This document shows positions 2,114 to 34,225 of a DNA stretch of 64,000 nt, piece after piece. Source of the DNA: Yamagishiella unicocca (taxonomy: Eukaryota; Chlorophyta; Chlorophyceae; Chlamydomonadales; Volvocaceae); the NCBI GenBank assembly GCA_003116995.1, contig BDSL01000172.1, positions 56,690 through 120,689 on the forward strand. The letters run 5' to 3'. Position 1 is the stretch's first letter. Each line of letters starts with the position of its first letter. Position numbers and translations under genes: made by a program. The notes beneath the pieces were generated by a model. It saw nothing but the letters and a program-made list of their open reading frames with translations, ran no database searches and was not told where the DNA came from.

Positions 2114-2446
2114 TTTTTATGAACTGTGCAGACCTGCCAATTAGTAAAAAATCATAGTTGTAAAACAAATGTGAAATCAGGCACGATTGTCAACTCAATA
2201 TATATTTGATTGTTGTTGTCATGATTTTGAGATTGGCGGTATTCAAAAAGCAACCAATTTAAAATAGTAAAATGGACTTCAGCAGTGTCCATCATCAGCG
2301 TTGTGCCCGTAATAATACACCCTTAAATCACATAGTAGAAGAAACTTAAGGTTTAGTTAATACGGGCACAACGCTGTCCATCATGCACATCGAATGTGTG
2401 CGTTAACTTTCCATTTTTAAACCGAACTTCAGAGGGTATTTTTGGG
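2114..2446. other. Intergenic spacer around MITE B
   Basis: The gap between two minus-strand genes. It holds an AT-rich stretch directly upstream of the 2113 start, which may act as promoter, and the complete MITE at 2296-2376. No credible gene is seen. Confidence 0.6.
2296..2376. mobile_element. MITE copy B (hAT-like, complete)
   Basis: An 81-bp element beginning CAGCGTTGTGCCCGTA and ending with its inverse TACGGGCACAACGCTG. It is flanked by perfect 8-bp direct repeats TCCATCAT (2288-2295 and 2377-2384). The internal half-palindrome ACCCTTAAATCA...CTTAAGGTTT is shared with the other copies. No coding capacity. Confidence 0.93.
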
Positions 2447-3994
2447 TCATTTTCTTTTCGAAGTCCTTCTTGTCGAAGCATTTGGTTTCGAAGTCGTTCT
2501 TGTCGAAGCTTTTGATTTCGACGTATTGCTTTTCGAAGAGTTTCTTATCGAAGAAGTCTTTGTCAGAGTGTTTCTTTGACTGTATTTTTGTCTGCCCAAC
2601 AAAGAGTCGGCGATAAATTCTGGGTCTACCGCGCTGATAAACCTATACAAATCTATAATGCACGACTGAATATTTTTGGAAAGAATGTTCACTCGAAGTT
2701 TATTGTTTTGGTCGATAATTTTGTTAGATTCCATGATTTTCAACAGAGCGATAGGGGACTTTTGAAGTGAATTCTGAAGCCTCCTTAATGCATCCATGAC
2801 CCTCGTCAGATACTTCAAAGAGCGCAATGGGTGTATGTGCGCATAACACATATTTTCTATGAAGCTACACATTAACATGTTTTGCCAGTTTGTCTGTTGT
2901 AACTGGGTCACACTGCCAGGAAAAGCTAAGTTCCGCTGCATACACATCACAACATGAAAAAATGTGCCTTGGCAGTGATAAGACTCCACCTGGTTCATAC
3001 TCACAGCCGACATGATCCCAATGACCCTGTTAATGTCACTTTGGATATCATTATCATCATGTCGACTGTTGGCCCTTGGAAGTTTTTTGGTGACCTCTTG
3101 GACTTCTACCATCAAGCCATATACAGAATCCGCGTCTATTAGAGGCTCTGCAATTATCTTTTTGTGATTGACCACCCATTCATGGAAGGCGTAATCATAC
3201 TGCCCATGTATAAGTACATCTCGTTCGCTACCTCCTTGTCCTCCTCCTTGTCCTCCTTCTTGTAGTCTATGTATTCTATGTAGGTCACTGTTCAATGTCA
3301 AACTCATTCTGAATTGGTTTGATATGCAGTAATCTGATAGGTTCGAAGTAACATCAATGTCACCATTCATGCGGATTGCGAAATTTGTAATGTAAAAATT
3401 GATGTCAAAAAAAGCATACACATTTTTTAAGTTCCCTTGAAACAAAACATCAATATCCTTCTCAAAACATTTCGTCATGAAATGATCAATATTAAGTGTG
3501 ATAAGGTAATTTGTGACAAAACATGTACTTGATACTGTTACATCAATATCAGAGTCAACGTTTTGGCTACCAAATGCAAGACATGTTGGCTTGACCATTC
3601 TGTCTCCATTACTGGACTGACACGACCTATGTGCCATTGCAGGACTCTGACAAACCGCCATTAACACATCCATGAGCTTCTTCCTGAACAAATACAGACT
3701 ATCGTTTGATTGGCGCCCTGTCATAACATACTTCCATTCAAGCTTCCACTCAGGGAGGGATTCAATAGGTGGAATAGCATCGAATTGGTCATGTCGAATG
3801 AGGTCTTTTACGTTTTCTTTGGAGGTAGGCCACATCGCATCGATAATAGCATTTCGTTCATGAGACCACTCAATAGATAGTTTATTATAATATCGATTCT
3901 CGTCATTGATAGTAACATCCCTCGAAGTTTGATATGATGTAAGGTGTGTTTGTAATGAGTTGCGTTTTTTCAATGACCTTCTCGTCTGTGACAT
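2447..3994 (-). CDS. Nucleotidyltransferase, poly(A)-polymerase-like
   Basis: From the chosen ATG at 3994 this is about 515 residues. Around residues 138-153 it reads AFGSQ-x(3)-SDIDVTV, the GS...DxD signature of polymerase-beta-like nucleotidyltransferases, which include viral poly(A) polymerase catalytic subunits. The C-terminal 40 residues are a basic Ser/Thr/Lys-rich tail (SKSNTSKSKASTRTTSK), possibly nucleic-acid binding. The frame is open to 4138, but that start would overlap the next minus-strand gene (4095-4352). The ATG at 3994 has a very AT-rich 50-base leader, so I prefer it. Poly(A) polymerase is inferred from the motif and the viral setting; other tailing enzymes are equally compatible. 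Confidence 0.7.
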   Translation of the reverse strand: MSQTRRSLKKRNSLQTHLTSYQTSRDVTINDENRYYNKLSIEWSHERNAIIDAMWPTSKENVKDLIRHDQFDAIPPIESLPEWKLEWKYVMTGRQSNDSLYLFRKKLMDVLMAVCQSPAMAHRSCQSSNGDRMVKPTCLAFGSQNVDSDIDVTVSSTCFVTNYLITLNIDHFMTKCFEKDIDVLFQGNLKNVYAFFDINFYITNFAIRMNGDIDVTSNLSDYCISNQFRMSLTLNSDLHRIHRLQEGGQGGGQGGSERDVLIHGQYDYAFHEWVVNHKKIIAEPLIDADSVYGLMVEVQEVTKKLPRANSRHDDNDIQSDINRVIGIMSAVSMNQVESYHCQGTFFHVVMCMQRNLAFPGSVTQLQQTNWQNMLMCSFIENMCYAHIHPLRSLKYLTRVMDALRRLQNSLQKSPIALLKIMESNKIIDQNNKLRVNILSKNIQSCIIDLYRFISAVDPEFIADSLLGRQKYSQRNTLTKTSSIRNSSKSNTSKSKASTRTTSKPNASTRRTSKRK

Positions 3995-4094
3995 TGTATA
4001 CAGTCGTATATTATTTACAATTGAATTACAAAATGTTTCATCTACATAGCGATATACAGACGTCATGTGATCTACTCCTATTAGGAGACTCCTA

Positions 4095-4352
4095 TCATGT
4101 TGGCCTATGCAAAGTGTGTTGGATAAACATGAGGGCACGTGTTATTATTGATGGTGTCTCTTGTTCAACTTCGTCTTCTTGATCAAATTCATCAATATCA
4201 TTAATCAGTGAAAACGTGCGACTTGCTGGAATATGAGGCAAATTATCCGATTGTGGTGTCTGAATTGATTGTGAAAGGGTACCTGGTGTTGTCATCATTG
4301 TCATTACAGCAAAAGCGATGAGGACAAAGAATAATATTCGAAGCCACGACAT
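4095..4352 (-). CDS. Small N-terminally anchored membrane protein
   Basis: 85 residues from the ATG at 4352; the open frame extends to a GTG at 4397 through a repeated SQTR leader that I consider untranslated. Residues 2-20 form a single hydrophobic helix (WLRILFFVLIAFAVMTMM), followed by a polar, acidic tail with DEFDQEDEVEQE. This type II-like layout is common among virion membrane proteins of large DNA viruses. No family recognised. It sits directly upstream of the nucleotidyltransferase at 2447-3994 on the same strand. Confidence 0.55.
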   Translation of the reverse strand: MSWLRILFFVLIAFAVMTMMTTPGTLSQSIQTPQSDNLPHIPASRTFSLINDIDEFDQEDEVEQETPSIITRALMFIQHTLHRPT

Positions 4353-4493
4353 TCTTTTTTGACTTCTTGTTTGACTTCTTGTTTGACTTGTTTTCACTTG
4401 TAAACCACTATTCTGTTATAATTATTCTTTTCTTGCTTTTCTTCTGTGTTTACTGTGTCCTCCAGCACAATTAATTTTTCCACCAAGCAATGA

Positions 4494-4751
4494 ATGCAAA
4501 CTAAAGTAATGGCGTCACCAACTATTCTCCCAATTCGACTATTAGAACTTATTGGTGGTGTTGATGGTGCAGACGTAGAGAAATATGGCGATTACACGAA
4601 AGTTATCAAAGGAGATGTGGAGGCATACTTATCACCTCCCCGAACATGCATAATCCTAAAATTTTCATGTTCTGACAACAAAATTCGTATATTTCCCAAC
4701 CTTTCTATCGCATCACACCATCTAGCGTCGACGTTGGACGAACTGGAGTGA
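4494..4751 (+). CDS. Small hypothetical protein
   Basis: 85 residues from the first ATG, or 80 from the second ATG at 4509. The sequence is mixed and compatible with a small soluble protein (LLELIGGVDGADVEKYGDYTK near the start). No family recognised. It lies between divergent and convergent minus-strand genes with no overlap, which modestly favours a real gene. Confidence 0.4.
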   Translation: MQTKVMASPTILPIRLLELIGGVDGADVEKYGDYTKVIKGDVEAYLSPPRTCIILKFSCSDNKIRIFPNLSIASHHLASTLDELE

Positions 4752-4824
4752 GTGGGTGACCGGACGAGCTGTTGGGCGAGTTGGAGTCCATATGATGATG
4801 ATTTTACAACTTACCACTTACAAC

Positions 4825-5538
4825 TTACATAATTTCAAATGCACGTCGCGACACGTCAGGCTCGATGGTGCTCATCATCCATGGTGATACCTTAAATTGC
4901 GGGTTGATTGGGTCTGAACGGAGCTGCAGATTTGCATTCCTCAACGATTGACCCTGTGTGTTGACACCAATATGCCATGCTGCGGTCATGAAGTTCAGGT
5001 TGCTCAGTTCTCCTTGACCAGAAGGTGTCACTTGTGCCCATTTGCTATTGGCAGCATCTTTTGGAAGAAGGTCCTCTGTAGATAGCCTCTTGCCTGAGAA
5101 TGGGTTTGGATTCCCTGCCGGGTTTCCAAAATCAACTGCCCGATACTGCTCATTGCTCAAAGGTTCGGAAGCTTCAACCGCTCCTGCAGCAGCCACTGCC
5201 CCCGCCGCGACACCCCGAGTACTCGGTGCTAGAGGTACCTTGACGCATGATTTGGAGTCACATCGCATGACGGTGGGTACAATGCTATTCTTGAACGCCT
5301 CTGCATCATCTTCCGGACTCGCATATGACCCATATGCATCCTGTGAGATATCGGCATCTTCTCCACCTTCATATTCATCATCATCACCTTCATAACCTTC
5401 ATGGTCAGGTTGAAACGTCGTGCTGAATGATTCATTTTTGCCGCAGCATGTTTGGTGTCGGTACAAGGCTATCAATGCAAATAGCACGATGGCCGCAACC
5501 AATATGATGAAGGCTCGGAATGCTATCGCTTTGTCCAT
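4825..5538 (-). CDS. Conserved virion-type membrane protein with SPW-STI-PD tail
   Basis: About 237 residues from the ATG at 5538, chosen because it places MDKAIAFRAF and one transmembrane helix (residues 8-27) at the N-terminus; the upstream extension to 5637 is less protein-like. A Glu/Asp/Tyr-rich linker and an Ala-rich segment follow. The C-terminal 90 residues carry LLPKD, NFMTAAWHIG, SLRNANLQLRSDP and SPWMMSTIEPDVSRR. I know this pattern from a conserved protein of Phycodnaviridae and Mimiviridae relatives, probably a minor capsid or inner-membrane component. The family placement is from memory and the exact role is an inference. Confidence 0.7.
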   Translation of the reverse strand: MDKAIAFRAFIILVAAIVLFALIALYRHQTCCGKNESFSTTFQPDHEGYEGDDDEYEGGEDADISQDAYGSYASPEDDAEAFKNSIVPTVMRCDSKSCVKVPLAPSTRGVAAGAVAAAGAVEASEPLSNEQYRAVDFGNPAGNPNPFSGKRLSTEDLLPKDAANSKWAQVTPSGQGELSNLNFMTAAWHIGVNTQGQSLRNANLQLRSDPINPQFKVSPWMMSTIEPDVSRRAFEIM

Positions 5539-5639
5539 ATCTATAGAGTTGTGTGATCTGCTGTTGACGAACAATATTAGTGATACATGGGAAAAAATTT
5601 CAATGCTGTCGAGTCGCAGAGAAGAGAAGTGAACCAAAG

Positions 5640-6035
5640 TGAAGTCTTATGAATTATGGAGGTATAACTCGACTTGCATTCATGCAAAACAACAAAACAA
5701 TTATTGTAACAATCATGAAAACATTCCATTACAAATTTTGAAATGCTATAATGAAATTGAATTCAATTGTCAATTGAATTGATATCAATACAACACAATC
5801 CCAACAACCCAACCAAATAGCTAGCGTTGTGCGTTGTGCGTTGTGTAATAATACAACACCCTTAAATCACTTTGTAAAACAAACTTAAGGTTTTGTTAAT
5901 ACTGACACAACGCTGCAAATAGCCACACATCCAGGATGATGGCATATAATATACTAATAGAAAAACCCGTCCAGGCTTCATTTATAGGATTCTCAACACA
6001 AAGAAGGTACCTTAAAACTTATTTTCAAGCACAAA
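5640..6035. other. AT-rich spacer with MITE C
   Basis: An AT-rich gap between divergent genes. It includes a short palindromic cluster around GAATTCAATTGTCAATTGAATT (about 5755-5781), the MITE at 5822-5915 and the upstream region of the plus-strand gene at 6036. No gene seen. Confidence 0.6.
5822..5915. mobile_element. MITE copy C (hAT-like, with internal end duplication)
   Basis: A 94-bp copy flanked by perfect 8-bp repeats CAAATAGC (5814-5821 and 5916-5923). Its left end reads TAGCGTTGTG followed by two further GCGTTGTG words, so the terminal motif has been locally triplicated. The right end is CTGACACAACGCTG. The internal core matches the other copies. Confidence 0.9.
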
Positions 6036-6401
6036 ATGAACGACGAACAACATCCAGCTCTCTCTACTACCTTTGATGAAGACTTGATGGCAATGAAGCA
6101 CGACGATTTGTTGCTTTGCACACCTGTGGATACAGAAGAGACGCGCTTGAACGACAGCAACAAGCCATCTATGGTTCGCGCACTAACGGGTCGGGTGCTA
6201 GATCTCATCATTACAGAACTACATAGCGCAGAAAATCAAAAGCGTCTCAAGGAGCACATCATCCACCCGCTCATTAAAATGCTATACACACAAATGTTTC
6301 CATACGTCCTGGTTATGTGCAGTGTCATCCTTATTATCCTCTTAACTTCACTCTGTACATGCACAATGTTTGCACTTTTTTTCTTTAGGTCGAGGCAATA
6401 A
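6036..6401 (+). CDS. C-terminally anchored small membrane protein
   Basis: 121 residues from an ATG. The N-terminal half is acidic and soluble. Residues about 55-85 (VLDLIITELHSAENQKRLKEHIIHPLIK) resemble the short helical block found before the C-terminal membrane anchor in conserved small proteins of algal giant viruses. Residues 87-118 form one long hydrophobic helix (YVLVMCSVILIILLTSL), ending in FFFRSRQ. Probably a tail-anchored virion membrane protein; function not known. Confidence 0.65.
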   Translation: MNDEQHPALSTTFDEDLMAMKHDDLLLCTPVDTEETRLNDSNKPSMVRALTGRVLDLIITELHSAENQKRLKEHIIHPLIKMLYTQMFPYVLVMCSVILIILLTSLCTCTMFALFFFRSRQ

Positions 6402-6463
6402 TGACTAGACAGCGAAACTAATAAAAATAACTAAAAAACAATTAAAAATAATAACAATGATCA

Positions 6464-6952
6464 TCACTCATTGTCTGATTCTTGTTGCTGTTCCTCCTTA
6501 ATCTTCAAGCCGTCCACATGGTTTTGTTGATCTACATTGGTCTTCGCCATTTGTACCTTGTTTTGGTGCTGGTGGAAGAATCGACTCTTCACATTTACAT
6601 GGGGCCTAATGACATTCAGGAAACCTGTATGATCCGCAGTATCGAAGAAGCCAAGGGATACATAGCGACTTTTCATTTCTTGAAATGTATCTGGAAATCC
6701 AAGCAAGTTAATACATACGGACAATGGGGCCGATACATGGCGTCGGTGCTGTGTAGTTCTACATGGCTTCTGTGTCTGTGCTTTTGTTGTTGCCGACGGC
6801 ATCGCATTGACTTCAACACCATCATCAAGCACATCAATTTCATCAATGATAGGGTTGACATTATGGTCCATGTAGGATGCACTTCTGTTATTTGTTGATG
6901 GTATGGTATCTCTGATATCTCTGATGTCAGTGTTATCTGGAATATGAGCCAT
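6464..6952 (-). CDS. Hypothetical protein, 162 aa
   Basis: 162 residues from an ATG. The N-terminus is rich in Asp/Ile (DNTDIRDIRDT) and the middle carries VCINLLGFPDTFQEMKSRYV, the most structured-looking part. The C-terminus is acidic and Gln/Glu-rich (KEEQQQESDNE). No membrane segment and no family recognised. A plus-strand frame overlaps it but has a less balanced composition, so I annotate the minus strand. It converges on the gene at 6036-6401. Confidence 0.5.
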   Translation of the reverse strand: MAHIPDNTDIRDIRDTIPSTNNRSASYMDHNVNPIIDEIDVLDDGVEVNAMPSATTKAQTQKPCRTTQHRRHVSAPLSVCINLLGFPDTFQEMKSRYVSLGFFDTADHTGFLNVIRPHVNVKSRFFHQHQNKVQMAKTNVDQQNHVDGLKIKEEQQQESDNE

Positions 6953-18462: not shown

Positions 18463-19950
18463 ATGAGAAGAATCAAGCTTAAGTTCGGTACAATTGATAA
18501 GGCCAGCAATGATGGCACTGAATCAGCAGGTAATGACGTTGCTCAATTTTACTTCCTAAAGGTTTACATGAACAGGTTCCAGACTGCTAATGGTAACTTT
18601 TATTGACCTTATGCAGGAAACAAAAGTCGTCCCAGCTCCATGATGGCTTCAGACACATCATTCGAGGGTGTCCCTGACAACATTCCCATTGGCACCGGGG
18701 ATGGAGATGGAGATGTTGAGGTCGGCACTGGAGCCGGTCATGGTGACGCTGGGGAGGCCAGCGATGGAGACATTGAGCTCGACACTGGAAACGGTGATGG
18801 TGACGCTGAGGAGGCCAACGATGGTGACGCCGAGGCTGGCGATGGTGATGCCGAGGCTGGTGCTGGTGACACCGAGTCTGGCGATGGTGATGCCGAGGCT
18901 GGCGATGGTGATGGTGAGGCTGGCGATGGTGACACCAAGTCTGGCGATGGTGATGCCGAGTCTGGCGATGGTGATGCCGAGGCTGGCGATGGTGACACCA
19001 AGTCTGGCGATGGTGATGCCGAGGCTGGCGATGGTGATGGTGAGGCTGGCGATGGTGACACCAAGGCTGGCGATGGTGACACCAAGTCTGGCGATGGTGA
19101 TGCCGAGTCTGGCGATGGTGATGCCGAGGCTGGCGATGGTGACACCAAGTCTGGCGATGGTGATGCCGAGGCTGGCGATGGTGATGGTGAGGCTGGCGAT
19201 GGTGACACCAAGTCTGGCGATGGTGATGCCGAGTCTGGCGATGGTGACACCAAGTCTGGCGATGGTGATGCCGAGGCTGGCGATGGTGATGGTGAGGCTG
19301 GCGATGGTGACACCAAGTCTGGCGATGGTGATGCCGAGTCTGGCGATGGTGACACCAAGTCTGGCGATGTTGATGCCGGGGCTGGCGATGGTGATGGTGA
19401 GGCTGGCGATGGTGACACCAAGTCTGGCGATGGTGATGCCGGGGCTGGCGATGGTGACACCAAGGCTGGCGATGGTGACACCGAGGCTGAACAGGTCAGT
19501 GGTCTATGGGTTGGACTCTATGGGTTTCCACTCTTGTGTTGGATAATGAATTAAATATGTGTGTATATTTCGACGCAGGTAACCCTACAAAAAAAGGGCA
19601 AGCGCAAGAAGAGCGTACCCTTCAGCTTCGAGGGTGATATCAAGGATGTAAAATGGCCCAAGAGCGGGGTGAGGTCTGGGGTACACCCGCAGCAGATCTT
19701 CAATTACTCAAACTACAAGCAGAACGGCTCACTATTGCTTTACGACGCCGTATTGTGCAAGAATATCTGCGACGCTGAAACTGGCGCCAAAATCAAGAAG
19801 AATTCAAATGTATTCGTTGTCATCGACTTCTTCCATTTCACTGCGAGGTTCTCCTCCTGGAATGGCACAGAAACCATCGTCGTGAACACCGATCTGAAAT
19901 TTGAGATGCCCTCAGCGATGACCTCAGCGAAGAGGTTCAAGAAGGAATAG
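18463..19950 (+). CDS. Spliced gene A: acidic GDGD-repeat protein with conserved C-terminal domain
   Basis: Three exons: 18463-18529, 18617-19494 and 19579-19950. Joined they give an open frame of 438 codons, while the unspliced sequence has in-frame stops in both introns (TGA near 18603, TAA near 19552). Exon 1 begins MRRIKLKFG. Exon 2 is about 35 copies of a heptad GDGD(A/T)(E/K)(A/S), encoded by a 21-base repeat, giving an extremely acidic region. Exon 3 starts with a basic KKGKRKK patch and encodes a domain of about 110 residues ([14 protein letters not shown]...). That domain is distantly similar to the C-terminal domain of spliced gene [13 protein letters not shown] against FEHGDINKV/HPSK, and later a similar [13 protein letters not shown] against VCVIIS.E.FFIRIS pattern. 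Function unknown; the layout suggests a nucleic-acid or histone-binding acidic protein, which is a guess. Confidence 0.8.
18530..18616 (+). other. Spliceosomal-type intron 1 of gene A
   Basis: 87 bases, donor GCAG|GTAATG, acceptor TATGCAG|GAAAC, phase 1. The intron contains an in-frame TGA, so splicing is needed to link the ATG exon to the repeat exon. Confidence 0.75.
18680..19490. repeat. 21-bp coding minisatellite
   Basis: A near-perfect tandem array of GCTGGCGATGGTGATGCCGAG-type units inside exon 2 of gene A. Higher-order blocks of about five units recur. The other frames are also open across this array, giving long spurious frames on both strands. Confidence 0.95.
19495..19578 (+). other. 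Spliceosomal-type intron 2 of gene A
   Basis: 84 bases, donor GAACAG|GTCAGT, acceptor CGACGCAG|GTAACC, phase 0. It contains an in-frame TAA. The split codes continue in the same frame on both sides. Confidence 0.72.
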
Positions 19951-20626
19951 GTCATCATTGGTTAGCCATCTCCGGTTTGGGGACTTTTGCTTGACCCTTG
20001 CTTTACTCCTCCATGACTCTTGAACTCTTGAACTCCTAAAATATTGAGACAATCTGACTTTCTGATTACTGTGATACTTTCCATAAGTCGCGCACGCATC
20101 TTATTGATTGGTAACAGCGTTTTAGAACGACTTCTGGTGTTTGTCAAGTGATTATTAATGACTTGCAACTCGAACACGTATGCGATATGATTGGTACCTT
20201 GTTGCAAGTACCTCGTTGGCACCTTGGTTCGTGTGCACGTGTGCGCATTAGTGGTCTATTCTATACGAATGTGGGTCACTGGACTTCGGGTCACAGGAAA
20301 TACGCAGCCGGTATAAGATATATCCGTCTTTTGACGGACTCTGCTTGTCCCTTTACAAAATCGTCGTGACAAGGGCGTCATGGCATGCCCACACACGGAT
20401 TTTATGCATGAACTTATTCCTCGTATTAAGGACTCTTTGTATCAATGACTCTTTGTATTAATGACTCTTTGTATTAATGACTTTTTGTATTCATGACTAC
20501 AGCATAATTGCTGTGCATGGATTGTTGCTGTGCATGGATTGCGCGCTTATGCTGCAAATACGTGTAATACGCAATCGGAGTCAATCGGATCAATTTGACA
20601 TCATAACATTAGACGTTAGACGTTAG

Positions 20627-20707
20627 CAGCGTTGTGCCCGTAACAAGACACCCTTAAATCACTTTGTAAAACAAACTTAAGGTTTAGTTAATACGGGCAC
20701 AACGCTG
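20627..20707. mobile_element. MITE copy D (hAT-like, complete)
   Basis: An 81-bp element with intact 16-bp inverted ends, flanked by perfect 8-bp repeats GACGTTAG (20619-20626 and 20708-20715). Same orientation as copy B. Confidence 0.93.
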
Positions 20708-21364
20708 GACGTTAGACACTCCGCTCAGTCTATATACAACTCAGTCAGTTGCGAGACAGGAATCTTCATTATCAGCATCATTGTCGATAAGGATAAAGGG
20801 TGGGCAACTTCGGGAAATACCCACTGTCGTGTGGTCACAGGAAATACACAGTCGGTTTTTATGTCCCACTGCAAAATATCGTGACCAGGGCATCTCGGCT
20901 TGCCCGCCCTCGCAAACAACGCATTGTCATCCAATGTGCAACACGTGCGAGATGATTAACGTGGAAGGCATCTTTGAACACTCCTCGTTAGACCTTTTAA
21001 TGTTGTAAATGAACGATTCCACAATTTGCATCTTCGTCTAAAATATGGTTATCTGCTTACACCCCGTTCCTCTTGCAAAGCTGGGTTCTGGCACTCCCTG
21101 GAACTTTTCGCAAACGCCTTCATGCGACTGGCAGTTGTCCACTAGGTAGACCTGAAGATCACCAAAGTTTCATGGGTCAAACGCTCTCCTCTCTGACCTA
21201 AATTAAGCATTGTTGAACACAAAAGAGCAGGGTACCACAAAAGAGGACTTCGATATGTTTTTAAGGGGAACTTCGTGTTAGACACATACAAATACAAACA
21301 AATACAAAGAATTTTGACACATACAATACATGGGGGGGGGGGTGTTGGGTTTGTTAAACCCACC

Positions 21365-21442
21365 CAGCATTGTGCCCGTATTAACAAAACCTTAAGTTTG
21401 TTTTACAAAGTGATTTAAGGGCGTATTATTACGGGCACAACG
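21365..21442. mobile_element. MITE copy E (hAT-like, right end trimmed)
   Basis: A 78-bp element, starting CAGCATTGTGCCCGTA and ending ACGGGCACAACG without the final CTG. Perfect 8-bp target repeats AACCCACC flank it (21357-21364 and 21443-21450). Opposite orientation to B and D. Confidence 0.9.
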
Positions 21443-21454
21443 AACCCACCACAC

Positions 21455-21682
21455 CTAGGCGTGGCCGCATGCTAAGCACATCAGGAACAAGCTCAACACA
21501 CCACCGACACAATTCAAAGTATCGGTGATACACGCTCCAATGTAGCAACCAATGTAGCAACCATCCATCGGTTTTGTTGGTTTCACGGTCGGAGCCACAG
21601 TCGGAGCCTCGGTAGGAGGAGCCTCAGGGTTGTCCGTGTTTGTGTATAAGCTGTGCACATGTGGGGGCTGGTTCTGTGACAT
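21455..21682 (-). CDS. Small Pro/Thr-rich protein with hydrophobic Cys-rich tail
   Basis: 75 residues from an ATG. The N-terminal half is rich in Pro, Thr and Val (EAPPTEAPTVAPTVKPTKP). The C-terminal 35 residues are hydrophobic with six cysteines (CYIGCYIGACITDTLNCVGG) and could be membrane-associated. No family recognised. The clear domain contrast favours a real gene, but the block is repeat-rich. Confidence 0.45.
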   Translation of the reverse strand: MSQNQPPHVHSLYTNTDNPEAPPTEAPTVAPTVKPTKPMDGCYIGCYIGACITDTLNCVGGVLSLFLMCLACGHA

Positions 21683-21832
21683 GTTTTTCCTTCAGAATTT
21701 TGAATGTATTCAGGAATGTCAAATGTCCAAATTATGTTTTCAAGTGTATCGTATTTTTTAAAGTGTATCGTAAATCAATTTTTTCCAACAAAGATTCTCT
21801 CGCAGTCAGTCGCGGCCTCACCTATATATAAC

Positions 21833-21872
21833 CGTGGAGCTCCTCCTCAACAGGGGCGCGGTAACAAAGAAT
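21833..21872 (+). pseudogene. Ankyrin-repeat fragment
   Basis: The plus strand encodes TVELLLNRGAVTK here, the second helix and turn of an ankyrin repeat matching units of the gene at 10006-11103, but with no start, no neighbouring repeat and stops nearby. It looks like debris of an ankyrin gene in the opposite orientation to the gene at 22127-22993. Confidence 0.5.
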
Positions 21873-21959
21873 ATCGGGGCTTGTATATTACATATTACAT
21901 TGGACACGATTTTTGGGAAAATATTTGGGAAAATATGAGTTGATGAGTCAGTATATAAT

Positions 21960-22126
21960 ACCCTGGAACTCTTGAAAGAAAAGAAAAAAGAACCCGCATG
22001 ATATCTCCGTGTGGATCGCACGATCTCAATGTGCCGCCCGCCTCCCCCATCTCCGACATCGCCAAGCGCATCCCTATTAACGTGGCACGTGTGGCCCGCG
22101 CATGCCGCGCAAAACGCAGCGCCTCT
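21960..22126 (-). pseudogene. Frameshifted 3' continuation of the ankyrin gene
   Basis: Just past the stop of 22127-22993, the next frame reads NEEALRFARHARATRATLIG, parallel to the preceding repeat (GNEALRLAEVSARANILRFLL). A further frame change then exposes GGRHIEIVRSTRR, an ankyrin HIEIV helix. At least one more repeat has therefore been cut off by indels. Confidence 0.55.
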
Positions 22127-22993
22127 TCATTGCCGCTCCTTGTCATCTTGCGCCAACAGGAACCTTAATATGTTCGCTCGGGCGCTAACTTCCGCCAAGC
22201 GCAGAGCCTCATTTCCTTGCGCGTGAACGTCAGCTTCGCTGTCCAAGAGTAAACGACGTACCATCTCCGCGCGGGCCCCACCTGCCGCGATACGCAGCGC
22301 ACTCTCTCTTGCTTCAGCAGACACGTTAGCTGCGACGATCATGTGGATGAGGGGCTGCACGATCTCCATGCGGCCGCACCGCTTAGCAGAGTTCAATGCA
22401 CACGCGTGCACTTCTCCTCGATTCGTGACCGGTAGTGATTGTACGCTGCGGAAGAGCAATTTGATAGCGTCCATGTTGCCGCCCGCAGCCGCCTTATCCA
22501 CGGCCTGGCAAGCGTATGTCATCAAGTCAGCGCCTCTCTCGATGAGGAAAGACACTGTGGACGTGTGGCCCTGCGCCGCTGCAACCACCAGTGCCTGGCC
22601 AATGAGCTCCTGCTGCTGCAACTCCTCTGATAGTATGAACTTGTCCAAGATGTACCGCGCCGTGTCAGTGCAGCTCGTCGCACATGCCCAGAGAAATATG
22701 TCCCGCTTGACGGCTTCTCGCAGGGTCTTCGCGCACTCCTCCGGACCGTTGAAAAGAGGCAAGAAGCTGTTCACGACGCTGTGACCGGGCGTTCGCCTAG
22801 TCACGTCCGTGACCAGAATGTTGTGTCGGATGCGAGCTAGGACCAGCGGGTCAGCCTTCTTGCTATTGTATATGTCCCTAAAGGTTGTGCAGCTGCGTAT
22901 GAGATCCTTGCTGCCATTGCTGACGACAATGACCTCTAAAAGGAGTTCTGGCGGTAAACTAAGCAAGTTCTTATCCTCATAATTGCTTATCAT
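22127..22993 (-). CDS. F-box-like / ankyrin protein, GC-rich, truncated at 3' end
   Basis: 288 residues from an ATG. Residues 10-47 (LLSLPPELLLEVIVVSNGSKDLIRSCTTF) match the F-box-like start of the 10006 gene, with the same VVSNGS/VRSNGS word. Ankyrin-like repeats follow (GHTSTVSFLIERGADL, GNMDAIKLLFRSV, GRMEIVQPLIHM, ARAEMVRRLLLDSEADVHAQGNEALRLA). It is much more GC-rich than the 10006 gene. The C-terminus ends abruptly after one helix, and further repeat sequence continues downstream out of frame, so the present protein is probably a shortened product. A role as a host ubiquitin-ligase adaptor is inferred only. Confidence 0.75.
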   Translation of the reverse strand: MISNYEDKNLLSLPPELLLEVIVVSNGSKDLIRSCTTFRDIYNSKKADPLVLARIRHNILVTDVTRRTPGHSVVNSFLPLFNGPEECAKTLREAVKRDIFLWACATSCTDTARYILDKFILSEELQQQELIGQALVVAAAQGHTSTVSFLIERGADLMTYACQAVDKAAAGGNMDAIKLLFRSVQSLPVTNRGEVHACALNSAKRCGRMEIVQPLIHMIVAANVSAEARESALRIAAGGARAEMVRRLLLDSEADVHAQGNEALRLAEVSARANILRFLLAQDDKERQ

Positions 22994-23384
22994 TTCTTGT
23001 TGTTTTCAATGAATGAACGATTCGTGAACGATTCATTAACTATTCGTGAATTATTTGTGAATTATTTTTGTGAATTATTTGTGAACTATTCGTGAACTAT
23101 TCGTGATTGTGATTGTGAACTTGAAAGTACAGTCATGCACGACAAATCAACATGAGAAGTACGAAACTGTCATCACTCCAGGGAACTGCGAATGTACTGC
23201 ATTTGCATTCCATGCATATATAATCAGCTTTTAAAGCTCAAAGGGCATATCTTATCATGTTTGCTCAAACATAGCTCATTACCTCACTATTACCTCACTA
23301 TTACCTCATTACCTCACTATTACCTCATTATTACCTCAGTTCATCAGCTACAGATTTTCAGGTCTCACAACGCCCGAACCTGCC
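22994..23384 (+). promoter_or_regulatory. Promoter region of spliced gene B
   Basis: About 23000-23120 has TTCGTGAACTATTCGTGAA repeats. At 23175-23203 ACTCCAGGGAACTGCGAATG then TACTGCATT repeats the box seen before gene A, followed by a TATA-like CATATATAATC at 23215-23225. About 23278-23340 is a run of ATTACCTCACT repeats in the probable 5' leader. The conserved box plus TATA spacing supports a shared promoter. Confidence 0.65.
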
Positions 23385-25105
23385 ATGTTGCCATCAAACG
23401 AGAACGTGACAGCAGTTTTTGGTGACCGCTTGATTGTCCACCACGGTATGTTGCCTCGGTAACTTCATGAATGTGTGCCTGCAAAACTAGGGTTGGCTTA
23501 ACTGCATTGATGATGATGATGACCACGTGTGCCATATTTTCCCCTTTCTCGCAGACACACACGGTGACACGGAGTGTGATGAGAAGATTAACGACGACGT
23601 GACAGCAGTTATTGGTGACCGCTTGATTGTCCACCACGGTATGTTGCCTCGGCAACTTCATGAATGTGTGCCTGCAAAACTAGGGTTGGCTTAACTGCAT
23701 TGATGATGATGATGATGATGACCACGTGTGCCATATTTTCCCCTTTCTCGCAGACACACACGGTGACATGGAGTGTGATGAGAAGATTAACGGTGATGTG
23801 AAGATTAATGGTGATGAGAAGATTAACGGCGACCAGAAGTATGACAGCGGTGCAGGAGGCAGTGCAGGCGACACCAAGCAGCGCCAAAAAAAACGCAAGC
23901 ACGAGGACGGAAGTGGTGGTGCAGGCGGCATCAAGCAGCAGCCTGGCAAGAAGAGCAGTCAAACGATGCGCAAGCACGATGGTACGAAACGTTGTGTTCT
24001 CAACCAGCGTAGTGCCCGTATTAACAAAACCTTAAGTTTGTTTTACAAAGTGATTTAAGGGCGTATTATTACGGGCACAACGCTGTTCTCAACTGAGCTA
24101 ACAATCACCTACCAACAAATATCATCTATCCCGAACGTGCGCACAGGTGGCGGCCCGCGAGATGACGCCCTTGATATCGAGGACGATAATGACGGCGCTG
24201 AGTCAGGACAGCGCAGAAACTCGTCGCTGGCAACAACTAAGCAAGGGGCACCCAAGCCGCCGGGAGGCAAGCAGGGGGCACCCAAGCCATCGGGAGGCAA
24301 GCAGGAGGCAGCCAAGCCATCGGGAGGCAAGCAGGAGGCAGCCAAGCCACCAGGAGGCAAGCAGGAGGCAGCCAAGCCATCGGGAGGCAAGCAGGAGGCA
24401 GCCAAGCCACCAGGACATAAGTCGCCAGGACACAAGCCGTCAGGAAGCCTTCAGGGGGCATCCAAGCCACCAGGACACAAGCCGTCGGGAAACCAGCAGG
24501 AGGCAGCCAAGCCACCGGCACCCAAGCCGCCGGCACCCAAGCCACCGGCACCCAAGCCGCCGGGAGGCACCAGCAACGACAACGACAACGAATCAGACAC
24601 CGTACCTGACTCTGATCAGGAGACGTCGCATGAGGAGTCGCCAAAGAAGTCGCCAAAGAAGTCGCCAAAGAAGTCCTTGGATAATGGACTCATCGTCATG
24701 GGCAAGAATTTCGACTTCGAACACGGCGACATCAACAAGGTGGCCTACCCCTTGACGCAGGGGAAGGAAATCATCCACCCGTCCAAGCTCGTCAGGTCCA
24801 AGTACATCAAGCGTGTTGGCACCACGCTCATCTGCTTTGGCAAACTTTTGAAGACGGTTTGCTGTGACAAGACTTCGGCAGTCATCCACAAGGATACAGC
24901 TGTCTGCGTCATCATCAGCCCAGAGAAGTTCTTCATTCGGATTTCTGAGGATCTGCGGAAGTGCAACACGTGCCAACCTCCGGTCGGCAAAACGTCGATT
25001 AACGTGTTCAAACATCTGCACTTCAACCAGAAGAAGGAGAATGCGTTGATGAAGAAGGAGGCGGAGGAGGAGGTGAAGCAGGAAGGAGAGGAGGGGATGG
25101 AGTAA
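23385..25105 (+). CDS. Spliced gene B: low-complexity protein with conserved C-terminal domain
   Basis: Four exons: 23385-23445, 23555-23638, 23754-23981 and 24147-25105. Joined they give exactly 444 codons (443 residues and stop), every junction in phase 1. Exons 1 and 2 encode a near-identical TAVxGDRLIVHH peptide, the result of a tandem exon-intron duplication. Exon 3 has KINGD repeats and a basic QRQKKRK patch. Exon 4 has PxGGKQEAAKPPGGK repeats, then KSPKKSPKKS, a pattern like histone H1 tails. A globular C-terminal domain of about 125 residues (from MGKNFDFEHGDINKV) is distantly similar to that of gene A. The last 25 residues are Lys/Glu-rich. Function unknown; the Lys-Pro repeats suggest DNA binding, as an inference. 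Confidence 0.85.
23446..23554 (+). other. Intron 1 of gene B
   Basis: 109 bases, donor CCACG|GTATGT, acceptor CCCCTTTCTCGCAG|ACAC with a strong pyrimidine tract and a CTTAAC branch-point candidate. It is nearly identical to intron 2, which differs by one T/C change and two extra GAT triplets. Confidence 0.88.
23639..23753 (+). other. Intron 2 of gene B (duplicate of intron 1)
   Basis: 115 bases with the same donor GTATGT and acceptor CTCGCAG as intron 1. The copy arose with its upstream exon as a tandem duplication of about 193 bases (roughly 23409-23601 and 23602-23800). Confidence 0.88.
23982..24146 (+). other. Intron 3 of gene B, containing a MITE
   Basis: 165 bases, donor GATG|GTACGA, acceptor GTGCGCACAG|GTGG, phase 1. 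Removing the MITE and one target copy leaves about 76 bases, close to the other introns. The insertion is fully inside the intron, so the spliced product is unaffected. Confidence 0.8.
24005..24085. mobile_element. MITE copy F (hAT-like, inside an intron)
   Basis: An 81-bp element with ends CAGCGTAGTGCCCGTA and TTACGGGCACAACGCTG, flanked by perfect 8-bp repeats TTCTCAAC (23997-24004 and 24086-24093). This target fits the nTnnnnAn preference of hAT transposases. Opposite orientation to B and D. Confidence 0.93.
24235..24575. repeat. 30-bp coding repeat in exon 4 of gene B
   Basis: Tandem units of GGAGGCAAGCAGGAGGCAGC then CAAGCC(A/G)(C/T)C(A/G) encode (P/S)GGKQEAAKP decapeptides, degenerating to PAPKP units. 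Spurious long frames occur on both strands across it. Confidence 0.85.
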
Positions 25106-25934
25106 TAGTTCCGGGAACTGCGACTGCAATTTGTATAGACTTGCGATTGACTTGCGAATTAAGCCGGTGGGTCTATGCATGTTTCGATGTTTCGATGTTT
25201 CGACGTGCGCTTGAGGATTTTTACATATGCAGATGGCGTGGGTTTGCCGAGATGCCATGTGGTCACGACAGTTTGCAAAGGGACAGCGTTGGGCTTGTTT
25301 TACAAAGTGATTTAAGGGTGTCTTATTACGGGCACAACGCTGCAAAGGGACACTAGGATTGTAGAAAGTCGAATAGACCTTCTAAAGACCTTTAACGATT
25401 GGGTTTTGGACATGCGCGCTTTCTTGAGGGTTTTCGACATGCGCGCTTTCTTGAGGGTTTTCGACATGCGCGCTTGCGGGTTGTGGGTTTGGACATGCGC
25501 GCTTTCTTGTGGGTTTGGACATGCGCTTGACAATCAAAGTGTATGAGCAGATCACATATAATTTATTCTGCTTCAACAGTGGTGCTTGTTAGTTATTGAA
25601 CATGTGTCACCAGGCCCTCATGGGGCCCATGTGTAACGAATGACACGAAACACTTTCCCTCACGTGTCACTGTGCCAAATTCCGATGAAGTTCAAAACCT
25701 CAGCTTTAGTCTTAGCGTATCGCTGCAACACAGAGCAACAGTGAATATATGCGACGCCGCGCTCTCCCTAGCCTCCACGCTGCATTCTCAAAGCTTGCTC
25801 TACATATGCTTTACTTTGTTATTTTGTTGTTTGTTGTTGTAATACCAAGTCTTGCGGAATCTTGCGGAATCCGAAAGGATCGTTGAAAATCTTCGAAATT
25901 ACATCGGAAGCATTTTGTTATAGGCACCATATCA
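25106..25934. other. Spacer with MITE G and 26-bp repeats
   Basis: Immediately after gene B, 25107-25132 (GTTCCGGGAACTGCGACTGC) resembles the promoter box of gene B, perhaps a duplicated promoter without gene. About 25409-25530 has four copies of a 26-base unit (GACATGCGCGCTTTCTTGAG and similar). TTGTTGTTTGTTGTTG repeats lie near 25820. No credible gene seen. Confidence 0.6.
25284..25342. mobile_element. MITE copy G (hAT-like, internally deleted)
   Basis: A 59-bp copy: the left end CAGCGTTG is joined directly to the core GGCTTGTTTTACAAAG, having lost about 22 bases. The right end is intact, and perfect 8-bp repeats CAAAGGGA flank it (25276-25283 and 25343-25350). Confidence 0.9.
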
Positions 25935-26294
25935 TCACATGGTCTTCCAGAACATTCCACAGTGCGAACAATAATAGAGAAACTTCATATTTATGGAATC
26001 GTACTTCAAGTAAATTACTTCTTCCTTGGAGGACTCAGGACGCTGACAGGTCTTGTTAATACATGGGATCTTGTCTGTCCTTGGAAGGGTATGGTCATAT
26101 GCGATATATTGTGAAAGATACTGCTTGTGTATACCCTCTCCATAATCTTCTTGATTTATGACTTCATTATTTGGGGCACCTGCATCGCCTGGGCCTGGGT
26201 CTGCATATGTTGCACAACACTTGCACTGATACTGCATTGCTGATCCATCTAAACGAAGGTAGAGCATGTTGTGACATTTGTCACAGAATCGCAT
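25935..26294 (-). CDS. RPB9: RNA polymerase subunit RPB9-like (zinc ribbons)
   Basis: 119 residues from an ATG. The N-terminal zinc ribbon has C4, C7, C24 and C27 (FCDKCHNMLY...), the linker carries the family hallmark DHTLPRT (67-73), and the C-terminal ribbon has C78, C83, C109 and C112 (YYCSHCGMFW). Length and order fit RPB9 better than TFIIS, because the TFIIS acidic RSADEP hairpin is absent. It would be the small lobe subunit of a virus-encoded RNA polymerase. RPB6 is encoded 500 bases upstream on the same strand. Confidence 0.88.
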   Translation of the reverse strand: MRFCDKCHNMLYLRLDGSAMQYQCKCCATYADPGPGDAGAPNNEVINQEDYGEGIHKQYLSQYIAYDHTLPRTDKIPCINKTCQRPESSKEEVIYLKYDSINMKFLYYCSHCGMFWKTM

Positions 26295-26488
26295 GTTGAT
26301 AGTGTTACCGGTAACCCCTTTCCTTTTGTGAAGGCGTACATTTTTTATGTCAAATTGATGTCCCTTCTCATTTTATTAGTTTAAAAAATATTTTGGGAAA
26401 ACGTACCGAGACTGATATCTCATGTATTTATTCTTGTTTTATTGTTATCCCAATCATATGAGATCAAGCCATTATCAACTACGCGTCA

Positions 26489-30992: not shown

Positions 30993-31130
30993 GTATACTA
31001 TGCATTACTATATGCATTCTTATGCATTACCACATGGAAGAGGCCTTGCAATGCATTCCGCAAGTCGAAAATATGAGTAAGAGCAACCCCCGCCGCCAGC
31101 TAACCTCTTCCACCTGGATGGTCTAATGGT

Positions 31131-31919
31131 CTAGTTGATGCCGTGCTGAGGCCCGTCAGCAGCCACCTGGACCGCTTTGATTGCCGCCTCAAGCTGGCTT
31201 AGGGCAATGTAACAGTCGGACTGCCCAGCCATATCATCGGAAGGCGGGTTATACCGCTCAATGGCATACTTCGCAAACGCTGCCAGGAACGGGTCTTTGA
31301 GGATGGCCTCAAACGTCATGTCGGTCGCACAGATGTGCAAGCGCACCAGGTAGGCCAGCACGCGGACATCCATGTCCTCATTCTCGCAGCAGTCAAGCTG
31401 TTGCATCGCAAAGGAAACCCATGTCGCCATCCGGGACGACGGCTGCCTCATCTCCTCCTCGGGCCAGAGTTCGTTGATGTTGGCGTCCTCCGACCTGGCC
31501 GCAGTGCTACAGGGCAAAGTCGTGAGGCGCTTTACCTCAGCTGCGAAGCGGTCGACCGGCATGTCCTCAACGGGGAACAGAACGTAGTGCTTCCCACACG
31601 CTATCTTGTCAGGGAGCCTATCCTTTGGAGTGTACTGTGGGCAGAGGCATCGATAAAAGATCCCTTGGTACAGCATGGCGAAGCCATCCGACACAGCGAA
31701 CCGCGGGGTAGTCACTTTACACTGTTCTGGGTCCCGGAACAAAGTATGGAGCCTCAGAACCAAGTCTGCAAAGGGTTCCACAAAGCTGACGCCTTTCTGA
31801 TATTTGTCTTTTTGGCTATATACCCATTGTGACCCATCGTGATGCTCGTAAGAGTCACAGTCCGCATTGCGTCCCACGAGGCCAGAAAAGCGGTGAAGCA
31901 CAACGTTAGGAAGTTCCAT
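31131..31919 (-). CDS. Hypothetical protein, 262 aa
   Basis: 262 residues from the ATG at 31919; the open frame extends to a GTG at 31970. The sequence looks globular: GSQWVYSQKDKYQKGVSF, FADLVLRLHTLF, CGKHYVLFPVEDM, then a helical C-terminus rich in Ala and Met. No signal peptide, membrane segment or recognised motif. GC content is somewhat above that of its neighbours, hinting at a separate origin. It stands alone with spacers on both sides. Confidence 0.6.
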   Translation of the reverse strand: MELPNVVLHRFSGLVGRNADCDSYEHHDGSQWVYSQKDKYQKGVSFVEPFADLVLRLHTLFRDPEQCKVTTPRFAVSDGFAMLYQGIFYRCLCPQYTPKDRLPDKIACGKHYVLFPVEDMPVDRFAAEVKRLTTLPCSTAARSEDANINELWPEEEMRQPSSRMATWVSFAMQQLDCCENEDMDVRVLAYLVRLHICATDMTFEAILKDPFLAAFAKYAIERYNPPSDDMAGQSDCYIALSQLEAAIKAVQVAADGPQHGIN

Positions 31920-32094
31920 TTCCGAAGATGAAGTGATACAATGAGATGTCACTGAGATGCCTGCTGTCACTGTTTAAACCTTTCGAGTCTCCAGAGACAG
32001 CTTCTCTAGAACCAAAGAGTCCGCGAAAACCCTTTTCAGATGCTTAGATCAGATGTTTAGCGGTATAGCATTATAGCGGCTAGTTGCATCGTAA

Positions 32095-33267
32095 TCAGCA
32101 TTCTACATCATCGCTGGCTTTAGTTTTGTATTCAGCGCTAACTTCAACTTCACCGCTGACTTCATTGGTGATGTTGTTTACTTCACTAAGTACATTGTTA
32201 TGCTCATTGTTATGCTCCATGACCTCCTTGACCTCCATGACTTCCTCGACTTCCTTGACTTCCTCGACTTCCTTGACCTCCATGACCTCCTTGACCTCCT
32301 TGACTTCCTTGACTTCCTTGACTTCCTTGACTTCCTCGACTTCCTTGACCTCCATGACCTCCTTGACCTCCTTGACTTCCTTGACTTCCTTGACTTCCTT
32401 GACTTCCTCGACTTCCTCGACTTCCTTGACATCTGCATTCGACTCCTGATTACTATCTTCAAGAGCTTCCATTCGACGCTGCAACCAAGGGTCGTCCTGT
32501 GCGTCATCGATACACGGGCATTCCGCAATTGTCTCTGCAGAATTATCAACCTTCGTATCCTCGTATCCCTGTTGAATTTTCTTACACTGGCTTATGGAGC
32601 TTGTAATGAGATTTGATTTTCGAGTGTCATAGACCTCTGTCTTTTGTTGGATGTTCTGCTTGTAATCCTTCATTAATGTATTGAGCTGTGTCTCAGCATA
32701 CTCGCAATTTTCAATGTCTTCTGGATTAGGTGACCAAGGGCACCAGCAACCTATCTGTGATACATATACATGAAATTTGTCGTCGAATTTCCTGATCTTC
32801 TTCGCGCGTGCAGTGGCCTCTTCAAGGGATTCATAGACACCTCGGATCTTGAAGCCGCGAATGCTGGTTTGAAAGCCTTCAATCTGTTTGAAACCGTCAT
32901 CGATAGACGCCTCGTTTAGAGCGGTAAAGCCATTGAATTCATCTAGGATGTCTTTCTCCGAAAACATGTATCGATATCTCTCACGAATGCTCTTGATCAT
33001 GTCATGGTTGTTCACATCATCCTTAAACTTTTCATCGAGGGATGTCAGCATTGAATCGATGTCACGTGACATTGCTTCAATAAATTTATGCACTTTAAAG
33101 ATATCTTTGCGTTTCAATACATCCTCGGGTGACACGAAAGATATACAGGCAAATTGCTGACCTCTGATAGGAGGATCCTGATCAAGGAAATCACTTTCGG
33201 CGACTGGCACTACTACTGCTGCTTTAGCTGGCTGTTGTTGCTGTGTTTGCTGTGTTGATGTAGACAT
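32095..33267 (-). CDS. Conserved giant-virus protein (DUF5832-like) with VKEV repeats
   Basis: 390 residues from an ATG. Residues about 35-240 include FACISFVSPEDVLKRKD, FKIRGVYESLEEATARAKKIRKFD and CWCPWSPNPEDIENCEYAETQLNTLMKDY. I associate this pattern with a conserved family in phycodnaviruses and mimiviruses, catalogued I believe as DUF5832. Residues about 275-365 are VKEVKEVEEVMEV repeats, a charged possible coiled coil encoded by a 15-base DNA repeat. Its role in the virion or in replication is not known. Confidence 0.7.
   Translation of the reverse strand: MSTSTQQTQQQQPAKAAVVVPVAESDFLDQDPPIRGQQFACISFVSPEDVLKRKDIFKVHKFIEAMSRDIDSMLTSLDEKFKDDVNNHDMIKSIRERYRYMFSEKDILDEFNGFTALNEASIDDGFKQIEGFQTSIRGFKIRGVYESLEEATARAKKIRKFDDKFHVYVSQIGCWCPWSPNPEDIENCEYAETQLNTLMKDYKQNIQQKTEVYDTRKSNLITSSISQCKKIQQGYEDTKVDNSAETIAECPCIDDAQDDPWLQRRMEALEDSNQESNADVKEVEEVEEVKEVKEVKEVKEVKEVMEVKEVEEVKEVKEVKEVKEVKEVMEVKEVEEVKEVEEVMEVKEVMEHNNEHNNVLSEVNNITNEVSGEVEVSAEYKTKASDDVEC
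32213..32432. repeat. Coding repeat GACCTCCTT / GACTTCCTC
   Basis: Tandem 9-15-base units within the C-terminal part of the 32095-33267 gene. The array consists of two or three larger similar blocks of about 78 bases, so the VKEV region has been duplicated as blocks. Confidence 0.8.
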
Positions 33268-33420
33268 GATTTGTTAATGAGATGCGAATATGTACTTTGT
33301 AGAACCGCTTACATTCAGTTCGTGAGTATGAGTTTAAATCTCTTTTTTCAACGTCTGATGTTTTAGTGTTTTTTAGTGTTTTGACCTAGTTTTTTGACGT
33401 AGTGTTTTGACTTATGAAGT

Positions 33421-34002
33421 TCACCTATGGCGTATAGACAGAACGATAACCCAAACGACGGCGACAGTCATGATTCCCAAAAGAATGAAGGCAAAAATAT
33501 CAAAGAGCTGGACTCCAGAATCATCATCTTCATCATTGTAGTTGTTGTAATCATAATAATCATAAGGTTGCACATACTCATACGATATGCTACTCTTGTA
33601 AGCTTTAGCGGCAGGCATGATATATTTCGGCACGCTAGGCTTCATGGGTTTAGATTTTCGCTTTGCTTTTCCAGGATTTGCTGTCATCATGATTGTCGGA
33701 GCCAGAGCAGGAAGACCACATGTCAGAGGCGCACCCATCTGATTTTCCCAGTCGACAACACCATCATCGGTAATAATGGAGCCGCCTCGCATGTTAGATG
33801 TCCTGTTGCCATAATTGCATTTCTGAGGAGCACTGTTATCTTGTAGAAGGCTATATGGGGATGCTTCAACGAGAGGGTTGTGAAACGCAGCATCACAACT
33901 CTGACGCTGGACACATTCGGGCTCTTCGAATGCGAGCCATGGGCTTAAGCATTGCGTTTGGGTTATGCATTGTGGTAGCGGCTCTTGGGAACGTATCGCC
34001 AT
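33421..34002 (-). CDS. C-terminally anchored membrane protein
   Basis: 193 residues from an ATG. A Cys/Pro/Gln-rich N-terminus (CITQTQCLSPW, CVQRQSC) is followed by a basic stretch KAKRKSKPMKPSVPKYIMP and a Tyr/Asn/Asp-rich linker (YDYYDYNNYNDEDDD). One transmembrane helix follows at about 168-188 (FDIFAFILLGIMTVAVVWVIV). The layout suits a virion membrane protein. Function not known. Confidence 0.6.
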   Translation of the reverse strand: MAIRSQEPLPQCITQTQCLSPWLAFEEPECVQRQSCDAAFHNPLVEASPYSLLQDNSAPQKCNYGNRTSNMRGGSIITDDGVVDWENQMGAPLTCGLPALAPTIMMTANPGKAKRKSKPMKPSVPKYIMPAAKAYKSSISYEYVQPYDYYDYNNYNDEDDDSGVQLFDIFAFILLGIMTVAVVWVIVLSIRHR

Positions 34003-34098
34003 AAATCTTCTGTGTTTTCGACTTTACAGTGAATATACAAAAAACTCGAGTTGTAAGGGTCTGTATTGATGGTTGACCCATATAATAATACTACTAAT

Positions 34099-34179
34099 CA
34101 GCGTTGTGCCCGAGTTAACTAAACCTTAAGTTTGTTTTACAAAGTGATTTAAGGGTGTATTATTACAGGCACAACGCTG
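34099..34179. mobile_element. MITE copy H (hAT-like, complete)
   Basis: An 81-bp element flanked by CTACTAAT (34091-34098) and CTACGAAT (34180-34187), an 8-bp target repeat with one mismatch. The ends are CAGCGTTGTGCCCGAG and TACAGGCACAACGCTG, so both ends have a mutation. This and the target mismatch suggest an older insertion. Confidence 0.9.
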
Positions 34180-34225
34180 CTACGAATCACATGTCCAACA
34201 ATCAATCAATAACAATGACAAAATG

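What the first reader, a model, noticed from the sequence alone, without database searches (positions are those of the whole stretch)
2288..34187. A hAT-type MITE family in a giant-virus genome
Eight copies (1-71, 2296-2376, 5822-5915, 20627-20707, 21365-21442, 24005-24085, 25284-25342, 34099-34179) share 16-bp inverted ends CAGCGTTGTGCCCGTA and an internal CCTTAA/TTAAGG hairpin. All seven complete sites have 8-bp direct repeats: TCCATCAT, CAAATAGC, GACGTTAG, AACCCACC, TTCTCAAC, CAAAGGGA, and CTACTAAT/CTACGAAT. An 8-bp duplication plus a CAGnG terminus is the hallmark of hAT transposons. Known giant-virus MITEs that I recall (for example in Pandoravirus) were assigned to mariner-like families, so a hAT-like family would be distinctive. 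Both orientations occur and no transposase is in the window, so movement must be in trans.
Basis: partly seen in the sequence, partly recalled or inferred. Interest (0 to 1): 0.9.

Follow-up and report, generated by a model that had tools for sequence, protein, structure and literature searches.

The report
Host-powered hAT mini-transposons in giant-virus DNA
Tiny 81-base jumping DNAs crowd giant-virus-like DNA in a eukaryotic genome, have the same ends as transposons of the host, and are present or absent in near-identical copies of that DNA, so they really moved; the same kind of system was already known from pandoraviruses.

Summary
Eight copies of one short inverted-repeat element lie where stated, and the seven complete in the window have 8-bp target duplications (six exact, one with one mismatch); the edge copy has none. 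The window lies on a low-GC, giant-virus-like contig of a 133-Mb eukaryotic assembly with 314 exact 16-bp ends (reversed-pattern control 0): 108-116 per Mb on two virus-like contigs, against 8 sites outside multicopy blocks on the 148 largest contigs (about 106 Mb, estimated). Two long host elements (1500 and 1396 bp) have exactly these ends, perfect 8-bp duplications and a BED-finger-like exon. Sister host ends, sharing 12-13 of 16 bases, lie beside hAT transposase genes (PF05699; aligned to Hermes across E572). Two insertion sites exist filled and empty in near-identical copies, each empty site read having one copy of the 8-mer. So this is a real, recently mobile hAT MITE family, most likely moved in trans by a host transposase. 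What may be new is a MITE seen only in virus-like DNA. No intact transposase gene between matching ends was found.

The parts
1..71 (-). MITE copy cut by the window edge (full copy C172:56680-56760)
   Evidence: flanks CCTCCTAC / GTCACAGG, no target duplication
2288..2384 (+). MITE 2296-2376 with target duplication TCCATCAT on both sides
5814..5923 (+). MITE 5822-5915, expanded left end (TAGCGTTGTGCGTTGTGCGTTGTG), target duplication CAAATAGC
20619..20715 (+). MITE 20627-20707, target duplication GACGTTAG; eight other places in the assembly match its 81 bases at 100%
21357..21450 (-). MITE 21365-21442 lacking 3 terminal bases, target duplication AACCCACC
23997..24093 (-). MITE 24005-24085, target duplication TTCTCAAC
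25276..25350 (-). Internally deleted MITE 25284-25342 (59 bp), target duplication CAAAGGGA
34091..34187 (-). MITE 34099-34179, target duplication CTACTAAT / CTACGAAT (1 mismatch)
45763..45778 (+). Single end CAGCGTTGGCACCGTA, the end found beside host hAT transposase genes on C152 and C96; no partner end found in the window

Best explanation
A non-autonomous hAT MITE family has multiplied in giant-virus-like DNA by cut-and-paste transposition, using a hAT transposase supplied in trans by the eukaryotic host. Shown: the anatomy, the 8-bp duplications, filled and empty sites in near-identical copies, host elements with identical 16-bp ends and 8-bp duplications, and host hAT transposase genes beside ends that share 12-13 of 16 bases. 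Inferred: that the host enzyme belonging to the identical-end (TGC) subfamily moved the MITEs; that much of the movement happened while the DNA was viral, since the short MITE was not seen in ordinary host DNA; and that insertions within genes were selected out.
For: 10 of 18 readable insertion sites have exact and 14 of 18 near-exact 8-bp duplications. First empty site: 4 contigs filled, 4 empty with exactly 8 overlapping bases, plus empty partial copies on C41 and C454. Second: 8 contigs filled, C151 empty with one TGTACAAG. Identical-end host elements with exact duplications on C11 and C47. PF05699 genes beside related ends on C152 and C96, and on C11 with a BED-like exon 43% identical to that of the identical-end element. 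C11 ORF best PDB match Hermes, E aligned with residue 572. A GCA-end host element on C6 with exact duplication CCGGCGGC.
Against: No element with two CAGCGTTGTGCCCGTA ends and a hAT catalytic domain was found; the two complete identical-end elements keep only the first exon, and one BED-like frame and one PF05699 gene carry a stop. MITE and host element share only the ends; the interior gave no meaningful match. 4 of 18 sites, and the edge copy as well, have no duplication. hAT expression or activity was not testable.
Confidence: 0.8

Rival explanations
1. The MITEs spread only after the viral DNA had been integrated, by hAT hopping to nearby chromosomal sites, so the virus itself never carried a mobile family.
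For: hAT elements favour linked sites (recalled). At least some of the DNA seems integrated: C62 and C64 hold both kinds of DNA.
Against: On the 148 largest contigs no 81-bp pair of exact ends is listed outside the multicopy blocks. Copies of one block, filled and empty, end at the same base beside five different flanks, which fits separate entry of different viral copies better than hopping in place; but whether those flanks are host is unsettled.
Confidence: 0.25
2. The repeats were spread by recombination or duplication of larger blocks, not by transposition.
For: Blocks with MITEs are multicopy on small contigs; 4 of 18 sites lack duplications.
Against: Similarity stops at the element ends in the window, flanks differ between copies, and empty sites lack exactly element plus one 8-mer.
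Confidence: 0.02
3. A virus-encoded transposase, not recognised by the searches, moves the MITEs.
For: Of the 20 window proteins scanned, 11 gave no Pfam family, and I saw only pieces of the other contigs.
Against: PF05699 was found nowhere on the contigs treated as viral, and identical ends occur on long host elements.
Confidence: 0.06
4. The family belongs to another superfamily with 8-bp duplications, such as P or MULE-like.
For: 8-bp duplications are not unique to hAT (recalled).
Against: CAGCG ends, and closely related ends beside PF05699 genes.
Confidence: 0.04

Closest known systems
hAT-NA MITEs of pandoraviruses with hAT-5 of Acanthamoeba (PMC6004678; abstract, passages and section 5 read)
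   Same: hAT MITEs at high copy number in giant-virus DNA; a host autonomous partner sharing the ends; 8-bp duplications; empty sites
   Different: Those MITEs are 116-422 bp and partners share 10-bp ends; here 81 bp and 16-bp ends. There several families were also found in the host; here the short MITE was not seen in ordinary host DNA. There the partner is intact; here no intact one was found. Sequence relation to those families not tested
Submariner MITE of Pandoravirus salinus (PMC4495683; search listing only)
   Same: MITE in a giant virus with a host partner
   Different: mariner-type, other ends and target (from passages of PMC6004678 and recall)
M1/M2 repeats of pithoviruses (PMC10664404; passages read)
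   Same: Palindromic MITE-like repeats that invade a giant virus
   Different: Dinucleotide target duplication; no related host transposon found by the authors

Membership tests
hAT superfamily | 8-bp target duplication | tested here: met
   10 of 18 sites exact, 14 of 18 with at most 1 mismatch, 4 of 18 without, and the edge copy without; null 0.0125% and 0.078%
hAT superfamily | Short terminal inverted repeats beginning CAGNG (rule recalled) | tested here: met
   CAGCGTTGTGCCCGTA
hAT superfamily | Related element encodes a transposase with the PF05699 dimerisation region | tested here: inconclusive
   PF05699 genes lie beside ends sharing 12-13 of 16 bases; elements with the identical ends keep only a BED-like exon
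hAT superfamily | Catalytic DDE residues | tested here: inconclusive
   Only the E region was aligned: it falls on Hermes residue 572 (catalytic role recalled). The two D positions were not tested
MITE | Short, without coding capacity, uniform length, many copies, inverted ends | tested here: met
   13 of the 18 sites are 80-83 bp; 314 exact ends in the assembly
MITE | Has moved: filled and empty forms of one site | tested here: met
   Two sites
Pandoravirus hAT-NA families | Sequence homology to the published elements | not tested
   Those sequences were not held
Giant virus (Nucleocytoviricota) origin of the host DNA molecule | Capsid and other giant-virus genes on MITE-bearing contigs | tested here: inconclusive
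   Capsid_N on C223, C509, C672, C715, of which C223 also bears the MITE; window has topoisomerase II, HSP70, DUF5832, ankyrin ORFs but no capsid gene was seen on its contig

The most novel reading that the evidence does not exclude
A MITE family specialised on viral DNA: it lives and jumps only in the giant virus and its integrated copies, is driven by a host hAT enzyme whose own long elements stay in host DNA, and was still moving among near-identical viral copies when these entered the genome, so that each integration brings dozens of ends that the host enzyme could recognise into a chromosome.
Probability: 0.4. Interest if true: 0.6.

Novelty: new member of a known kind. Interest (0 to 1): 0.42.

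Why it matters
If it holds, it is a second setting, beside pandoraviruses, in which giant-virus DNA is colonised by a hAT MITE whose likely enzyme is the host's. Filled and empty sites lie side by side in one assembly, so timing and host dependence can be tested directly. If the restriction to viral DNA is real, it raises the question why host hAT elements and viral MITEs with identical ends occupy separate DNA.

Tried and rejected
Relatives in IMG/VR: scans with the topoisomerase II, part of the capsid protein, HSP70 and a 920-aa ORF gave no confirmed relative (these use exact short peptides and are not sensitive). Empty sites for the window's own eight copies were therefore not found. Window 1500-6600 and 19800-26400 (which hold 6 of the 8) have no close second copy in the assembly, only MITE matches and 68-73% paralogues (40 of 327 and 40 of 293 candidates scored). 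Ten IMG/VR contigs with an exact 16-mer were not read: one 16-mer is expected by chance in a collection of that size (own estimate), and the paired-end pattern and an interior 25-mer gave none. The idea that the sharp edge of the multicopy block is a MITE end was dropped, the edge reads ...GTGTTCTGCG. A composition score separates the window from host loci but leaves the blocks near that edge and their flanks ambiguous, so 'the flanks are host' is not claimed. No host species or virus family could be named; three ORFs of a host locus that looked alga-like to me gave no Pfam family. No Rfam family and no tRNA in the window.

Full report
Observation. With up to 3 mismatches the 16-mer occurs 14 times in the window; 0.34 are expected and none of 100 shuffles reaches 14. 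The seven copies complete in the window have 8-bp repeats, six exact and one with a mismatch. The copy at the window edge is complete in the contig (C172:56680-56760), but its flanks CCTCCTAC and GTCACAGG do not match. For a wider count I took 18 sites with both ends and both flanks readable (7 in the window, 11 in fetched loci), picked from the pairs; further loci showing the same insertion site, half copies and the edge copy were dropped. Of the 18, 10 have exact and 14 have near-exact duplications and 4 have none. Twelve full copies differ by 6.8% on average, from 2.6 to 9.9%, while the copy at 20627 has eight further 100% matches, so the family has young and older members.

Setting. The window is part of contig 172 of an assembly of 133 Mb in 1415 contigs. 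Its GC is 0.457; the host loci L001-L003, L005, L007-L015 and L017 have 0.52-0.64. Of 20 window ORFs scanned, 9 gave a Pfam family, among them topoisomerase II, HSP70, DUF5832 and ankyrin repeats. The giant-virus capsid domain lies on C223, C509, C672 and C715, and C223 bears the MITE. I call the DNA giant-virus-like; the family is undetermined.

Distribution. Exact ends: 149 forward, 165 reverse, reversed control 0 and 0. The answer lists the first 100 in contig order. By my tally 18 of these lie on C1-C148: 8 in host-like places (C11 two, C39 one, C47 three, C63 one, C67 one) and 10 in multicopy or virus-like blocks near contig ends (C41, C64, C82, C108, C109, C139). C149 has 20 in 184.6 kb and C172 has 14 in 120.7 kb. 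C1-C148 sum to about 106 Mb by interpolation between known contig lengths (the tally typed into that script had C149 at 19 and C204 at 6, where the list gives 20 and 5). On C1-C148 the list shows no pair at the 81-bp spacing outside the blocks. This covers exact ends only; of 330 candidates for the 81-bp sequence 40 were scored, so diverged host copies are not excluded, and the 214 ends not listed lie on smaller contigs of which I read few.

Host partners. Two long elements have exactly the MITE's ends and perfect 8-bp duplications: C11:235169-236668 (TCTCCCAT) and C47:487553-488948 (CGAATGCC). They contain a short open frame with CxxC pairs; Pfam gave no family for it, so 'BED-like' is my reading. 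A similar exon, 43% identical and with one stop, lies at C11:1257981-1258142, in a locus with the end CAGCGTTGTTACCGTG upstream and a PF05699 ORF downstream; a similar exon also lies inside a pair of CAGCGTTGGCACCGTA ends on C30. PF05699 genes on C152 and C96 have CAGCGTTGGCACCGTA downstream. The pattern CAGCGTTGNNNCCGTR has 209 + 232 sites, control 14 + 11; in its list of 100 the repeated triplets besides TGC are mainly GCA, TTA and CGA. A GCA pair on C6, 1297 bp, has CCGGCGGC on both sides. The C11 ORF has Hermes transposase as best PDB match (E 0.001), and its conserved glutamate falls on Hermes residue 572 when counted from the stated start at 540 of chain 8edg_A (that E572 is catalytic is recalled). 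A coding element complete with both ends was not found. MITE and host element share only the ends: the interior gave two 9-base matches with E 3.1.

Movement. At the first site C64 reads ACAGTA CCTGTACC TGTTTT, while C108 and C139 have the 81-bp element between two copies of CCTGTACC. In the wider search (40 of 315 candidates scored) C108, C139, C353 and C657 are filled and C62, C64, C424 and C1023 are empty, each empty one with exactly 8 overlapping bases; C41 and C454 hold inverted partial copies that are empty too (of these only C64 was read letter by letter). At the second site C82, C109, C150, C164, C424, C590 and C827 are filled over the whole 1000 bases and C372 over 978, while C151 is empty with one TGTACAAG (40 of 320 candidates scored). 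Flanking identity is about 99-100% in these rows, so the insertions are recent compared with the divergence of the copies, or the copies have been homogenised. A perfect excision could also leave such a site, but hAT excision usually leaves a footprint (recalled).

Mechanism. The simplest account is cut-and-paste by a hAT enzyme acting in trans. The enzyme source is inferred: the identical-end host elements look like deletion derivatives of an autonomous element that this assembly does not show intact. The eight window copies lie outside the 40 ORFs that I kept of the 54 (these 40 cover 73%; chance about 8e-6 by random placement). One copy, 25284-25342, does lie within a dropped antisense ORF (24593-25345), so this figure depends on that choice. 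Selection against gene hits, or a preference for intergenic DNA, would explain it. Whether movement came before or after integration is open. One multicopy block ends at the same base beside five different flanks, with different MITE content, which favours movement before; but the nature of the block near its edge and of its flanks is unsettled. C64 holds a remnant like the C11 element at 115 kb and the block at 594-601 kb, and C62 a CGA end at 188 kb and the block at 606-612 kb, which favours integration, if the contigs are correctly assembled.

Known work. hAT MITEs in pandoraviruses, with a host hAT and empty sites, are in PMC6004678 (abstract, passages and section 5 read). Pithovirus repeats are in PMC10664404 (passages). 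My searches listed no title that reports this family or a hAT MITE in an algal endogenous giant virus; I judged by listings and abstracts' beginnings, and the library lacks most subscription journals. Verdict: real, a new member of a known kind, with one unusual trait (restriction to virus-like DNA) that needs a full count.

Noticed in passing
window 45763-45778; C149:8949-8964; C149:125776-125791: Single ends CAGCGTTGGCACCGTA, the type beside host hAT genes on C152 and C96: a second hAT family may have reached the viral DNA.
   Followed up: partly
C82:10253, C109:10663, C150:12065, C151:31198, C164:28786 (L018, L020, L024, L070, L027): A multicopy block ends at exactly the same base (...GTGTTCTGCG) beside five different flanks; diverged sequences on C33, C133, C168, C221, C233 and C345 stop at the same point. 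It could be a viral terminus or an integration edge.
   Followed up: partly
window 1502-2115 and 42310-42910: A pair of paralogous stretches, 70% identical, within the ORFs 296-2113 and 41053-42909.
   Followed up: no
C41:23070-24884; C454:17954-19766: Inverted duplications around the empty form of the first MITE site.
   Followed up: no
C223, C509, C672, C715: Four capsid genes with the same score (198.6 bits), so part of the viral DNA is present several times.
   Followed up: no
L025:4065-6951 (C151); L016:5797-6771 (C64): Long open frames with ADP-ribosyltransferase-like, Hint (Vint) and histone-deacetylase domains in virus-like or multicopy blocks.
   Followed up: no
window 34188-64000: No MITE copy in the right part of the window, where the kept ORFs cover 85% (from 35001 on) against 62% of the first 35 kb.
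   Followed up: no
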